From Candidatus Zixiibacteriota bacterium (GTDB taxonomy: Bacteria > Zixibacteria > MSB-5A5 > WJJR01 > JAJRUJ01): a stretch of 43,188 nt of DNA. Of the stretch, positions 23,160 to 32,204 are shown in pieces. The stretch is taken from assembly GCA_020051695.1 (NCBI GenBank), contig JAGVQM010000022.1:1-43188 (forward strand). The letters are read 5' to 3'. The translations under genes and the position numbers were made by a program. Numbering within the stretch: position 1 is the stretch's first letter; each line of letters begins with the position of its first letter. The notes beneath the pieces are model-generated. The model had not been told where the DNA came from, did no database searches, and saw nothing but the letters and a program-made list of their open reading frames with translations.

Positions 23160-23198
23160 ACTGATTGTCATAATTGTCGTCCAATCAAGACATTACAA

Positions 23199-23220
23199 GC
23201 CGCCATCCGGCGGTTTTTTT
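23199..23220 (+). terminator. Intrinsic terminator of the acyl-CoA operon
   Basis: CCGCC at 23200-23204, a 4-base loop, GGCGG at 23209-23213, then seven Ts. It lies 40 bases after the last acyl-CoA dehydrogenase gene. Confidence 0.85.
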
Positions 23221-23370
23221 GCCGGTGATAAACATATACCCGGCTCCGGGTTTTGTCAAACCGGCGTTGGATTTTGTTGCACGATACTGTATGTTTTCGT
23301 CCAAGAGGTAGTGACGGACACAGAGTCTGCGCGGGAGAAAACGCGCGGGGCCCGGGTAAAGGAGCACACG

Positions 23371-24324: not shown

Positions 24325-24765
24325 ATGAAAATTTTTATCGGCGCCGATCATAAGGGATATTCCCTCAAGCAACGCTTGAGCGCAATGCTCAAAGATCAAG
24401 GGCATGAAGTCACTGACGTGGGTACACATTCGGAAGATTCGTCCGATTATCCCGACTATGGCTTGCAGGTGGCCCGGGCGGTGGCTGAGGGCCGGGCGGA
24501 CCGGGGGATCACCATCTGCTGGACCGGCAACGGGATGAGTATCGCCGCGAACAAAATCGCGGGAGTACGCGCGGGGTTGTGTTTGAATGAAGACATGGCG
24601 ATGCTTACGCGCGCGCATAACGACGCGAATGTCTGTTCGCTGGCCTCGCGGTATGTCACCCCGGAAGACGCCGAAAAGATCGTGCATGTGTTTTTATCCA
24701 CCGTTTTCGAAGGCGGCCGACATAGACAACGTCTGGAAAAGATTGCCGCCGCCGAAAAAAAATAG
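24325..24765 (+). CDS. rpiB: Ribose 5-phosphate isomerase B
   Basis: A 146-residue RpiB/LacAB-family sugar-phosphate isomerase for the pentose phosphate pathway. Recognisable segments are IGADHKGYSLK, NGMSIAANKIAGVRAGL and RAHNDANVCSLASR. The active-site cysteine is Cys65. The usual C-G-T-G that follows it reads C-W-T-G here, and the next variable residue is Asn, an unusual change beside the catalytic residue. A GGGGAG lies before the ATG, and the gene is 9 bases from ilvE. The promoter of the downstream RNA lies inside its last codons. Confidence 0.92.
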   Translation: MKIFIGADHKGYSLKQRLSAMLKDQGHEVTDVGTHSEDSSDYPDYGLQVARAVAEGRADRGITICWTGNGMSIAANKIAGVRAGLCLNEDMAMLTRAHNDANVCSLASRYVTPEDAEKIVHVFLSTVFEGGRHRQRLEKIAAAEKK

Positions 24766-24771
24766 TATATT
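24743..24771 (+). promoter_or_regulatory. Probable promoter of the RNA downstream of rpiB
   Basis: TTGCCG at 24743-24748, exactly 17 bases of spacer, then TATATT at 24766-24771. It overlaps the 3' end of rpiB and would start RNA near 24778-24781. Confidence 0.5.
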
Positions 24772-24778
24772 ATTTACA

Positions 24779-24984
24779 CGTTGAGGGATTGCCGTCCACG
24801 GGGCGGTTGAGTCCTGGGCCGCAGTGATCTGCGGTTGAGGTGGAGGGTCGATTGATTTTACAGATCCGGGAATATCCGCGCGTTAATCGCGTATAAGAAA
24901 TAGAGGGGGGTGGCCGCAAGGCCTATCCCTTGTTACTGCCAGGGACGGTGATCAGCGGGTCCTAATCGGCTCGCTGATTTTTTT
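24779..24984 (+). ncRNA. Free-standing structured RNA, family not recognised
   Basis: About 205 nucleotides with no open frame of note, its own promoter-like boxes and a strong terminator. Paired elements visible by eye: a 10-base closing stem, ATTGCCGTCC (24788-24797) with GGACGGTGAT (24943-24952, allowing G-U pairs); a hairpin CCGCA/TGCGG at 24819-24834; a hairpin around CGCGttaatCGCG; and a hairpin at 24907-24929 with one bulge capped by a GCAA tetraloop. The closing stem and the terminator stem share two bases, so they compete slightly. The next gene is on the other strand, so this is not a riboswitch for it. Size fits 6S RNA, but I do not see a clear 6S central bubble. SRP RNA and tmRNA hallmarks are absent. 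Confidence 0.65.
24951..24984 (+). terminator. Intrinsic terminator of the RNA gene
   Basis: ATCAGCG at 24951-24957 pairs with CGCTGAT at 24972-24978, with further G-U and G-C pairs inside, followed by a run of Ts. Its direction is rightward only. Confidence 0.85.
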
Positions 24985-25003
24985 GCATGCTTGTTTCCTG
25001 CGG

Positions 25004-25045
25004 CCCGACCGTTCCGGTCGGGTCGCATCATGGGCGAGACGCCCA
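25004..25045. repeat. Two small palindromes between convergent transcripts
   Basis: CCCGACC/GGTCGGG (25004-25022), then TGGGCG-AGA-CGCCCA (25031-25045). These are short dispersed-type hairpins, unlike the GIY-YIG-linked family. They sit just after the stop codon of the mutase small-subunit gene. Confidence 0.65.
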
Positions 25046-25055
25046 TGCCACGCAG

Positions 25056-25472
25056 TTACACGAGCGGTTCGTCGGTCATCGTCGCGGCGGTCTCGCGGAT
25101 GTATTTTACGATATCCTCGGTCGACGCCCCCGGTGTGAACACTTTGCCCACGCCCGCAGCAGTCAGCTTGCCGACATCCTGATCGGGAATGATCCCGCCG
25201 CCGAACAAATGGACGTTTTTATCCGCGCCTTTTTCCTTGAGCAGCTTGGCTACCGCCGGGAACAAGGTCATGTGCGCGCCGGAGAGGATCGACATCCCGA
25301 CAAACCGCACGTCTTCCTGGATCGCCGCGTTGACGACCTGTTCGGGGGTTTGGCGCAGGCCGGTATAGATCACTTCCATCCCGGCATCGCGCAGCGCCGC
25401 GGCGATGACTTTGATTCCCCGATCATGCCCGTCCAGACCGGGCTTGGCTAAGAGAACTCTGATTTTTTCCAT
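25056..25472 (-). CDS. B12-binding small subunit of acyl-CoA mutase
   Basis: A 138-residue cobalamin-binding domain. The motif DGHDRG near residue 15 holds the His that becomes the lower cobalt ligand; later segments are [10 protein letters not shown] and a FGGGIIP loop, standard for mutase small subunits. It needs the large subunit encoded at 27278-28990 for activity. In related genomes the two genes are usually neighbours; here about 1.8 kb with an Mrr gene, a GIY-YIG gene and palindromes lies between them. No clear ribosome site precedes the ATG at 25472, which may reflect the disruption. The family label in databases would be methylmalonyl-CoA mutase, but see the large subunit. Confidence 0.92.
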
Positions 25473-25504
25473 ATTATTTTACCAGCGAAATTTTCGTTTA
25501 TTGC

Positions 25505-26524
25505 TCAGTTTTCTTCTCCAATATCCGGTGCAAATACTCTTTGCAGAGGGATACGACTTTTGTGTTCGGCATCCAATTGATCGTAATACGTGTAGATTAA
25601 CTTCACGAATTCGGGGCCATCAATAAGTCGGACATTTCCCCGTCCAGCCGCCGCCATCTTGGCCTCCTGATTGAACCCCCCTAGTGATATGAATAATGCA
25701 AATTCGCCACTGTTCATGCCGCCGATCAATTTCTGGACAGCAGGGCCGCCAGCTTGACCAACATGGCTTTTTACTTCAATTCGGATTACGGGGGAGTGAA
25801 AGCCAAATTCATCCGGGTGCGCAATAACGTCCTTACCTCCATCAGGACCGGGTCGATCGCGATGCCTGGTTTTATACCCCATTGCTTCCATCAAGTTTGC
25901 AGTGAGACCCTCAAGAGGAATACCTTTGTAATATTTCTCTAGTCTTTTTAGGACGAAATCAGTTGTAAGTTCTGTCACTCTGTCTGTACCGATTCCCTCT
26001 TCTTCATCACCAATGGCAGGCACATCCTGTTCAGGTTTCGGTCCGCTAATGGTTTTCGAAATTAAAGCGTTAATTTCATCGGCATGAGTAGTGACTTGAT
26101 ACACGGTCAGTTGACAACCGATTTCGTAAAGTGCACCTTGGCTGATGACTGCTCTTCTCAAATCGACAATCCATTTTACATCTCGGATATGAGGACACAG
26201 ACCGTCAAGGTTTTTGGAATTGTAACGGTAATTGCCGACGACTCTTCCAACATGGATAATTGGTTCATTCCTATCAGGACTTAAGATCGAATCCCCGTCT
26301 TTGATTTCCTTTGAGAACCGCCATAACTGTCCTGCGTGGTTGGCTATTTTCCATTTGTTTGCTCCTGGATCATTCGCTGCCAGAATTTTCTTAATAGCAT
26401 CTCGACTCTTTAATTTATCCATATCGGAGAAGAAACTAAAGCCGATTGCCACAAAACCACGCTCGCGATCTGCCCAAAATTTCTCGCCCAATCCGATGGG
26501 ATTTCTGCAAACATAGATGGCCAT
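25505..26524 (-). CDS. Mrr-type restriction endonuclease with N-terminal PUA/EVE-like domain
   Basis: A 339-residue nuclease. The C-terminal half is an Mrr catalytic domain of the PD-(D/E)xK fold: GPDGGKD with Asp232, then IRIEVKSH with Glu250 and Lys252, and a downstream Gln264. The N-terminal 120 residues (opening IYVCRNPIGLGEKFW, later KEIKDGDSILSP and HVGRVVGNY) look like a PUA/EVE-type module, of the sort that reads modified bases. Together this suggests a modification-dependent (type IV) defence nuclease; no methylase is adjacent. A good AAAGGA site precedes the ATG at 26524. The gene is AT-richer than its neighbours and separates the two mutase genes, which points to acquisition by transfer. 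Confidence 0.8.
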   Translation of the reverse strand: MAIYVCRNPIGLGEKFWADRERGFVAIGFSFFSDMDKLKSRDAIKKILAANDPGANKWKIANHAGQLWRFSKEIKDGDSILSPDRNEPIIHVGRVVGNYRYNSKNLDGLCPHIRDVKWIVDLRRAVISQGALYEIGCQLTVYQVTTHADEINALISKTISGPKPEQDVPAIGDEEEGIGTDRVTELTTDFVLKRLEKYYKGIPLEGLTANLMEAMGYKTRHRDRPGPDGGKDVIAHPDEFGFHSPVIRIEVKSHVGQAGGPAVQKLIGGMNSGEFALFISLGGFNQEAKMAAAGRGNVRLIDGPEFVKLIYTYYDQLDAEHKSRIPLQRVFAPDIGEEN

Positions 26525-26596
26525 GGTTCTGTCCTTTCAGGTCACGGCTGACATTTCATACCGGGAGGCTGGAATCCAGAAAACAAATGCGCTAAA

Positions 26597-26699
26597 CTGG
26601 ACCCCAGCTTGCGCTGGGGTGATAGGAAATAGTACGCTCGCTGGGATGACAAAAAAGAACAACTTGGCCCCTGTCATTCCGGCGTAGGCCGGAATCCAG
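26597..26699. repeat. REPIN-like doublet 1 (two facing palindromes)
   Basis: A rightward unit at 26597-26624 (CTGGACCCCAGC...GCTGGGGTGATA) faces a leftward unit at 26673-26699 (GTCATTCCGGC...GCCGGAATCCAG). The outer ends of the doublet are both CTGGA/TCCAG and the inner ends both TGAY/GTCA. The spacer holds a broken extra half-unit (CTGGGATGAC at 26641) and the word AAAGAACAACTT. Confidence 0.8.
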
Positions 26700-26716
26700 G
26701 AGGACCTGCCGTTACG

Positions 26717-26792
26717 CTGGACCCCAGCCTGCGCTGGGGTGACAGAAAAGAACAACCTCAACCTTGTCATTCCGGCGGAGGCCGGAATCCAG
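26717..26792. repeat. REPIN-like doublet 2 (two facing palindromes)
   Basis: The same build as doublet 1: a rightward unit at 26717-26744 and a leftward unit at 26766-26792, joined by a 21-base spacer with GAAAAGAACAACCT, close to the spacer of doublet 1. The right end stops 3 bases from the stop codon of the GIY-YIG gene. Confidence 0.82.
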
Positions 26793-26795
26793 TCT

Positions 26796-27077
26796 TTACG
26801 CGAGTGTGTCATATAAATCATGCCATCCCGGATTGCTCTCTTCAATCAGTCTCATTTTCCAATCGCGTTTCCACGACTTGAGTTGCTTTTCCCTTCGTAG
26901 CGCGGCTTGTACATCCGCTGTTTGTTCAAAGTAAACGAGTGTGTGAACACTGTATTTTTTCGTAAATCCCTTTACCAAATCGTTTTTGTGTTGATAAATT
27001 CGTTTCATCAAGTCTGAGGTCATCCCAATATATAATGTTCCATTTTTGCGGCTGGCGAGGATATAGACATAGTACAT
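26796..27077 (-). CDS. GIY-YIG nuclease, small UPF0213-like type
   Basis: A 93-residue single-domain nuclease. The motif is YYVYIL then TLYIGMTSDLMKRIYQH, with the conserved YFE and the ending EKQLKSWKRDWKMRLIEE, all typical of the stand-alone GIY-YIG (YhbQ/UPF0213-like) group. The frame is open to 27155, but residues upstream of the ATG at 27077 are just the translation of a palindrome, so that ATG is used. Palindromes hug both ends: one finishes 3 bases past the stop, and one starts 31 bases ahead of the start codon. Such nucleases cut DNA once per active site; a role in moving or maintaining the palindromes is inference. Confidence 0.88.
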   Translation of the reverse strand: MYYVYILASRKNGTLYIGMTSDLMKRIYQHKNDLVKGFTKKYSVHTLVYFEQTADVQAALRREKQLKSWKRDWKMRLIEESNPGWHDLYDTLA

Positions 27078-27093
27078 TGTCGCTGTTTCCCGT

Positions 27094-27220
27094 GCCACAC
27101 TCCGCCCCTGGATTCCGGCATCCGCCGGAATGACGTAGCGGGGAAAGACAGGCATTTATGTATTTGCCTTTTCTCGGTTGCCACCCTCCGCCCCTGTATT
27201 CCGGCTTGCGCCGGAATGAC
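27094..27220. repeat. Two direct copies of the GIY-YIG-linked palindrome
   Basis: Palindromes at 27108-27134 (CTGGATTCCGGC...GCCGGAATGAC) and 27194-27220 (CTGTATTCCGGC...GCCGGAATGAC), both rightward. Each is preceded by the near-identical flank TGCCACACTCCGCCC or TGCCACCCTCCGCCC, so this is a roughly 86-base tandem duplication. With the unit at 26766-26792 the first copy forms an inverted pair around the nuclease gene. Confidence 0.8.
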
Positions 27221-27277
27221 ATGGCAGGGCGGTCTGCGGTGAACTCCGGTACACTTCTTGCATTTTGCAACCATCCC

Positions 27278-28990
27278 CTAAAACATCGGTGGTTCCAGAT
27301 ATTCACCGAAAACCTCGCGCATGACGTCGACCATTTCGCCCAACGTGGCGTACGCTTTTGAACATTCGATCAAATACGGCATCAGGTTTTGCGATTCATC
27401 CTCACACGCGGCTTTCAATGCGGCGAGTGTGGTTTGCACACGCTGGTTGTCGCGCGCCTGCCGCAGTTGGCGAAGCGATTCGATTTGTTCGATTTCCACG
27501 CTCTCATCGATTTCCAGAAGCGGGATTTCGATTTTATCGTCCATCACAAATTCGTTCACCCCGACCACGATGCGTTCTTTTTTCTCCACCTGCTTTTGGT
27601 ATTCATAAGCCGACTTGGCAATCTCGCGCTGGAAATAACCCTTTTCGATCCCGGCCAGCACCCCGCCGAGTTTTTCGATTTCCGCGAAAATCTTCTCGGC
27701 TTCGGCCTCCATTTGATCGGTCAGCGCCTCGACAAAATACGACCCGGCCAGCGGATCGATCGTATTGGTCACCCCTGATTCCAGCGCAATTAACTGCTGG
27801 GTGCGCAGGGCGATGAGTGCGGCTTTTTCCGACGGCAACGCCAGCGTTTCATCCATCGAGTTGGTATGCAGCGATTGCGTGCCGCCCAGCGCCCCGGCCA
27901 TCGCCTGCCAGCCCACACGCACGATGTTGTTCTCCGGTTGTTGCGCGGTCAGCGAAACCCCGGCGGTTTGGGTGTGGAACCGCATCAGCCACGACCGTTC
28001 GTTTTTGGCGTTGTATTTTTCACGCAGGCGCCGGGCCCAGATGCGCCGGGCGGCGCGGTACTTGGCGATTTCCTCGAAGAAATCCAGATGCGAATTGAAA
28101 AACAACGACAGCCGCGGCGCGAACTGATCGACATCCAGCCCGCGTCTCATGGCTGCCTCGATATAGGCAAAGCCATCGGCCAGCGTATAGGCCAGCTCCT
28201 GCACGGCCGTAGCGCCCGCTTCGCGGATATGATAGCCGGAAATCGAGATCGTATTCCATTTGGGCATGTGGTAGGTGCCGAACTCGATGGTATCGACAAT
28301 CAGCCGCATGTGGGGCAGAGGGGGAAACACCCACTCTTTTTGTGCGATGAATTCTTTCAGAATATCATTCTGCAGCGTCCCGGTAAGCTGTTCCGAGGGT
28401 ACGCCTTTTTTCTCACCGACCGCAACGTACATGGCCAGGATAATGGCCGCCGGGGCATTAATCGTCATCGATGTCGAAATCTTACCGAGGTCGATCCCGT
28501 CGAAAATAATCTCCATGTCCTTGAGCGAATCGACCGCCACCCCGCATTTGCCGACTTCGCCCCGGGAGAAATGATGGTCGGAGTCATACCCCATCAGCGT
28601 GGGCAGGTCAAAAGCCACCGACAGTCCCATCTGCCCCTGGCTTAACAGGAAATGATAACGCTCGTTGGTTTGTCGGGCGTTGCCCATCCCGGAAAACAGC
28701 CGTTGCGTCCACAGCCGCTTGCGGTACATCTCGGCATGCACGCCGCGGGTGTAGGGATACTGGCCCGGAAAGCCGACCTCAGCCATAAAGTCTTTCCCGG
28801 CGACATCATCGGGCGTGTACATTGGCTTAATCGGTACGCCGGAGACGGTAATGAATTTCCGGCCGTCCAGGTTCTCCGCGCCGGAAAGTTCCTTTTCCCA
28901 CTTGGCCTTGGCCTCTTCGTATTTTTTGCGGTCAGATTTGGGCAGCACTTTTTCCACACCTTTTTTTGCCGAATCGATTATCTCAGCCAT
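27278..28990 (-). CDS. B12-dependent acyl-CoA mutase large subunit, isobutyryl-CoA mutase-like
   Basis: A 570-residue catalytic subunit of the methylmalonyl-CoA mutase family (without B12 domain). Segments [49 protein letters not shown] (His254) and [12 protein letters not shown] are clear. The two residues that set substrate choice are not those of methylmalonyl-CoA mutase: the Tyr of RQYAG is Phe99, and the Arg after QNDILKEF is Gln217. Phe plus Gln is the known isobutyryl-CoA mutase pair, so it probably interconverts butyryl- and isobutyryl-CoA. The ATG at 28990 has GGAAGG 6 bases ahead; the frame is open to 29053. MeaB is encoded just upstream. Confidence 0.93.
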
Positions 28991-31831: not shown

Positions 31832-32204
31832 CCCAACCGGTGATCGATAAGCCGGGTTCTGTAATCCGCTTGCGCGGACCGATGACCATTTATCTGACGT
31901 TGCCGTCGCCGACAACGTTATGCAGCCTACCCGGGAGTAGAACGGGGCAAGCGACCCCTGTCTCCCTGCTTGGCCTTGCTCCGGGTGGGGTTTACACGGC
32001 CCGGCCGGTTTCCCGTCCGGCGGTGGTCTCTTACACCACCTTTTCACCCTTACCTCACGTTTTCACGCGAGGCGGTTATTTTCTGCTGCACTTTCCGTCG
32101 GATTACTCCGCCCTCGAGTTACGAGGCACCCCGCTTTGTGGAGCCCGGACTTTCCTCACCCTGGAATTGAGTTTCAGGGCGCGGCCATCTGACCGCCGGT
32201 TGGG
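31832..32204 (-). ncRNA. rnpB: RNase P RNA (class A)
   Basis: The catalytic RNA of RNase P, which matures tRNA 5' ends, about 373 nucleotides on the minus strand. The conserved P4 region reads GAGGAAAGTCCGGGCTCC near the 5' end, and the 3' part has the ACAGAACCCGGCTTA motif. The end stem P1 pairs CCCAACCGG at the 5' end (32204 down) with CCGGTTGGG at the 3' end (31840 down to 31832) without mismatch, which sets both ends. It lies between priA and recJ on the same strand; recJ begins 33 bases after it. No clear T-run terminator separates them, so some read-through into recJ is likely. Confidence 0.95.

What the first reader, a model, noticed from the sequence alone, without database searches (positions are those of the whole stretch)
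24743..24984. Unassigned structured RNA with its own promoter and terminator after rpiB
A promoter with ideal 17-base spacing lies in the end of rpiB, then about 205 nucleotides with a 10-base closing stem, three internal hairpins (one with a GCAA tetraloop) and a strong terminator. The downstream gene is on the other strand, so it acts in trans. It lacks SRP and tmRNA hallmarks; 6S is possible from size but not from visible pattern.
Basis: partly seen in the sequence, partly recalled or inferred. Interest (0 to 1): 0.7.

Follow-up and report, generated by a model that had tools for sequence, protein, structure and literature searches.

The report
Lineage-specific folded RNA after rpiB
Right after a sugar-isomerase gene in an uncultured Zixiibacteriota bacterium lies a DNA stretch whose RNA would fold unusually well and ends in a clear stop signal; only its last third is found in the nearest relative, so it is probably a local elaboration of the gene's tail rather than a new widespread RNA.

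Summary
The described sequence is real: a 205-nt segment (24781-24985, +) between rpiB and a convergent B12-binding mutase subunit gene, with a plausible promoter (TTGCCG-17-TATATT), a multibranched fold (z -4.4; -3.5 without the terminator) and a strong terminator. It has no Rfam match, even at permissive thresholds, and is single-copy in its genome. In the only held relative of the same GTDB family, where gene order is conserved, only the last ~80 nt (hairpin, linker CCAGGGAYGGT, terminator) persists. The 5' ~120 nt, the 5' strand of the closing stem and the promoter are missing. A covariance model finds no credible homologue in 132 genomes of the class, and other rpiB tails differ. A neighbouring terminator in the same two genomes is conserved just as well, so the conserved part is explained as the rpiB terminator. 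The 5' part is lineage-specific; its closing stem pairs with the conserved linker better than chance (p about 0.01, post hoc). Most likely it is a structured rpiB 3'-end RNA, possibly a MicX-like sRNA from its own promoter. It is not 6S. Independent transcription and action in trans are unproven.

The parts
24325..24765 (+). rpiB (ribose-5-phosphate isomerase B), upstream gene
   Evidence: Pfam LacAB_rpiB E 1.3e-55
24743..24771 (+). sigma-70-like promoter candidate TTGCCG-17-TATATT, overlapping the rpiB stop codon
   Evidence: scan, 9/12; the RNase P RNA gene of the same window has TTGCCA-16-TATAAT; not present at the syntenic place of G001
24781..24985 (+). candidate structured RNA or rpiB 3' UTR
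   Evidence: fold z -4.4; no Rfam match
24791..24806 (+). 5' strand of the closing stem, lineage-specific
   Evidence: pairing probability near 1 and better than 99% of shuffles against the linker; missing in G001
24903..24930 (+). hairpin with GCAA loop; counterpart present in G001
   Evidence: low pairing probability of its 5' half in the ensemble
24936..24949 (+). linker, CCAGGGAYGGT conserved in G001; 3' strand of the closing stem here
24950..24985 (+). intrinsic terminator; two compensatory pair changes between G000 and G001
25056..25472 (-). B12-binding (methylmalonyl-CoA mutase small subunit-like) gene, convergent
   Evidence: Pfam B12-binding

Best explanation
This is the structured 3' end of the rpiB transcription unit. 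An inherited terminator module (hairpin, linker, terminator hairpin, shared with the nearest relative) has gained, in this lineage, about 120 nt of extra folded sequence, which closes a multibranched domain by pairing with the linker. RNA from rpiB, and perhaps from a weak promoter at the rpiB stop codon, would end at this terminator and accumulate as a stable 3'-end RNA of about 205 nt, as MicX does in Vibrio cholerae. Shown: the sequence, the fold statistics, the terminator, and conservation of the 3' third only. Inferred: that the 5' part was gained here rather than lost in G001, transcription, stability and any regulatory role.
For: Terminator directly downstream of rpiB and no downstream gene on the same strand. 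The 3' module is syntenic and conserved in G001 with two compensatory changes in the terminator. Fold z -4.4, and -3.5 without the terminator, with 1 of 204 control segments at z <= -3.5. The linker pairs with the 5' part better than 99% of shuffles. The promoter resembles the one before RNase P RNA in the same window. sRNAs from mRNA 3' ends, some with ORF-internal promoters (MicX), are an established class (PMC9438474).
Against: There is no expression evidence. The 5' part has no homologue, so no covariation test of the multibranched domain is possible. The promoter is only 9/12, and its -10 lies in the AT-rich stretch found after rpiB in several relatives without this RNA.
Confidence: 0.5

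Rival explanations
1. Plain rpiB terminator plus neutral GC-rich intergenic sequence that folds well by chance; no functional RNA beyond transcription termination.
For: Only the terminator module is conserved in G001. Another terminator of the same contig pair is conserved equally (window 23180-23221, z 6.3 against 5.3). Promoter-like sites occur at about 0.5 per 1.2 kb by chance.
Against: Fold z -3.5 without the terminator. The closing stem with the conserved linker is better than 99% of shuffles.
Confidence: 0.35
2. An ancestral independent sRNA gene of the family, truncated by deletion in G001, acting in trans by base pairing.
For: Promoter, size and terminator fit the classical sRNA gene layout (PMC9438474). 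G001 lacks exactly the 5' part.
Against: Not found in any other genome of the class or in other rpiB loci. No Hfq detected in 20 genomes including this one.
Confidence: 0.08
3. A CsrA-binding (sponge or titrating) RNA: the linker CAGGGAYG fits the CsrA consensus CANGGANG and is conserved in G001.
For: Perfect CANGGANG at 24940, kept in G001. csrA is present in 20 of 20 genomes.
Against: Only 4 GGA in 205 nt, no more than shuffles give. The GGA of the motif is paired in the closing stem here. The motif was picked after the fact.
Confidence: 0.04
4. A divergent 6S RNA.
For: Size; 6S (RF00013) is not detectable in this genome or anywhere in the class, so a diverged form could be missed.
Against: The fold is a multibranched loop, not a rod with one central bubble. 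No Rfam score even at a permissive threshold. Not conserved in the class, unlike a housekeeping RNA.
Confidence: 0.03

Closest known systems
MicX-type sRNAs (3'-end sRNA made from an ORF-internal promoter; Vibrio cholerae MicX, PMC9438474)
   Same: Promoter at the end of a coding gene, ~190-205 nt, 3' UTR location, ends at the gene's 3' end
   Different: Expression and targets unknown here; no Hfq detected; no sequence relation tested or claimed
6S RNA (RF00013)
   Same: Approximate length, base-paired ends
   Different: Multibranched instead of a rod with a central bubble; no model score; not conserved in the class
CsrB/CsrC/RsmY-type CsrA-titrating RNAs
   Same: One conserved CANGGANG site; CsrA present in the genome
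   Different: No enrichment of GGA, and the site is paired rather than in a loop

Membership tests
6S RNA (RF00013) | Covariance-model score above the family cut-off | tested here: not met
   No match at gathering or at E<=10 in 24600-25100; none in the genome
6S RNA (RF00013) | Rod-like hairpin with one large central bubble | tested here: not met
   Minimum-energy and centroid folds are multibranched
6S RNA (RF00013) | Binds sigma70-RNA polymerase and templates pRNA | not testable with these tools
   needs biochemistry
CsrB/RsmY-type CsrA-titrating sRNA | Many GGA motifs, enriched over chance | tested here: not met
   4 GGA; shuffles give 4.5 on average
CsrB/RsmY-type CsrA-titrating sRNA | GGA exposed in hairpin loops | tested here: not met
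   The GGA of the one full consensus site is paired in the closing stem
mRNA 3'-end sRNA (MicX-like) | Located at the 3' end of an mRNA and ending at its intrinsic terminator | tested here: met
   Position after rpiB and terminator by sequence; the mRNA itself was not observed
mRNA 3'-end sRNA (MicX-like) | Own promoter in or at the end of the ORF | tested here: inconclusive
   9/12 consensus match, not conserved in G001
mRNA 3'-end sRNA (MicX-like) | Accumulates as a discrete small RNA | not testable with these tools
   no transcriptome data

The most novel reading that the evidence does not exclude
A real, independently transcribed structured RNA of a new class, confined to one genus or family of Zixiibacteriota, whose multibranched domain uses the old rpiB terminator linker as its closing strand and acts in trans without Hfq.
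Probability: 0.12. Interest if true: 0.5.

Novelty: new member of a known kind. Interest (0 to 1): 0.25.

Why it matters
If it is expressed, it would be a small RNA candidate in an uncultured phylum for which the one literature search made here returned no relevant paper, and in which neither 6S nor Hfq could be recognised. It would also illustrate how a terminator can grow into a structured RNA. If not, it is an ordinary gene terminator with a well-folding spacer.

Tried and rejected
Rfam at gathering and permissive thresholds (only chance hits: DnaX element, sX6). A single-sequence covariance model R1 over 132 class genomes: the three best weak hits (E 0.004-0.04 per genome) lie inside long open reading frames (a RecG-like helicase frame on the other strand, a histidine kinase-like and a glycosyltransferase-like frame; identities read from the translations) and were rejected. 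Model R2 of the 3' module: apart from G000 and G001, hits are weak and terminator-like or within-gene matches. Search for the 5' part in the G001 rpiB-mcmB interval: none. Sequence copies elsewhere in the genome and two exact patterns in IMG/VR: none. Small ORFs on the + strand inside 24785-24982: none of 20 aa or more. 6S-Flavo model in the two genomes: none, and its control was uninformative. Three TTGAG motifs (24781, 24807, 24835; 0.3% of shuffles) noted but post hoc and unexplained.

Full report
What is there. The window belongs to a Candidatus Zixiibacteriota genome (named relatives; own assembly G000, 3.53 Mb, 98.9% complete). rpiB (24325-24765, +, Pfam LacAB_rpiB) is followed by 290 nt and then by a convergent gene for a B12-binding methylmalonyl-CoA mutase subunit (25056-25472, -). 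In the gap, on the + strand, lie a promoter-like TTGCCG-17-TATATT at 24743-24771 (9/12) and a 12-bp terminator at 24950-24979 followed by a T run. The RNase P RNA gene in the same window has a better match of the same type, TTGCCA-16-TATAAT, so sigma-70-like promoters are plausible in this organism.

Is it more than chance. The segment 24781-24985 folds to -91.8 kcal/mol, z -4.4, with none of 200 shuffles as good. Without the terminator it is z -3.5. An independent estimate with 40 shuffles gave z -6.1 with the terminator and -3.3 for 24781-24948; of 204 control segments from the window only one reached -3.5. The opposite strand folds less well (z -3.2 and -2.2). The closing stem and the first hairpin are near certain in the ensemble, whereas the 5' half of the GCAA hairpin is not.

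Known family? No Rfam family matches at gathering thresholds or at E up to 10 with relaxed filters, apart from two chance-level scores. 6S is not detected in this genome or in any of 132 genomes of the class, although the same model finds E. coli, B. subtilis, Caulobacter and Synechococcus. The fold is multibranched, unlike 6S.

Conservation. The nearest held genome, G001 (same family, other genus; RpiB 74% identical), shares gene order across this part of the window. Directly after its rpiB it carries only the last ~80 nt: a hairpin, the linker CCAGGGAYGGT and the terminator. The terminator has two compensatory changes and 100% paired cells. With only two sequences this is weak evidence: 120 of 500 shuffles do as well. 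The 5' ~120 nt find no partner in the G001 interval, and the G001 linker pairs with nothing upstream better than chance. A second terminator in the same pair of genomes (window 23180-23221) is conserved as strongly (z 6.3 against 5.3), so conservation of the 3' module needs no explanation beyond termination. Other Zixiibacteriota rpiB loci have unrelated tails. The covariance model of the full domain finds nothing credible in 132 genomes or in 25 rpiB loci. That model rests on a single sequence, so distant homologues could be missed.

The lineage-specific part. The 5' part is not simply random with respect to the old module: it pairs with the conserved linker at -21.5 kcal/mol, matched by 0.85% of shuffles, and forms the stem that closes the multibranched loop. 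This is the main argument that the domain is selected. It is post hoc, and without homologues no covariation test is possible. Whether the 5' part was gained here or lost in G001 cannot be told from two genomes.

How it would work. The most economical reading is an elaborated 3' end of rpiB mRNA. Transcripts from rpiB, and perhaps from the weak promoter at the stop codon, end at the terminator and are protected by the structure. MicX of Vibrio cholerae, made from an ORF-internal promoter as a ~190-nt 3' UTR species, is the closest precedent (PMC9438474). Action in trans is not shown. No Hfq is detectable in this genome or 19 relatives, whereas CsrA is present in all 20 searched. The linker fits CANGGANG, but GGA is not enriched and the site is paired, so a CsrA sponge is a minor option. 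The CANGGANG consensus and the description of Csr-type RNAs rest on my own knowledge.

Verdict. The claim of an independent trans-acting RNA with conserved structure is not supported by relatives. It remains a lineage-specific candidate that needs transcript data.

Noticed in passing
window 25473-27280: About 1.8 kb between the two methylmalonyl-CoA mutase genes is absent from the syntenic G001 contig (83 bp there); it holds an Mrr-type restriction endonuclease gene (25508-26524, -), a GIY-YIG gene (26799-27155, -) and short repeats whose translation reads PAQAGVQ.
   Followed up: partly
class-wide: No 6S RNA (RF00013) in any of 132 class genomes and no Hfq in the 20 searched, whereas CsrA is in all 20. 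A phylum-specific 6S or RNA chaperone may await discovery.
   Followed up: partly
window 24803-24811 and 24831-24839: GCGGTTGAG occurs twice (spacing 28) and TTGAG three times in the junctions of the candidate RNA.
   Followed up: no
L032 2063-2150 and 2225-2313: Two near-identical ~90-nt palindromic repeats (GGGCACTGTATACATTG...GGTCAGGGCCACGCCTGCCT) lie after rpiB in G001.
   Followed up: no
window 31832-32200: RNase P RNA class A on the - strand with an 11/12 sigma-70-type promoter about 105 nt upstream.
   Followed up: no
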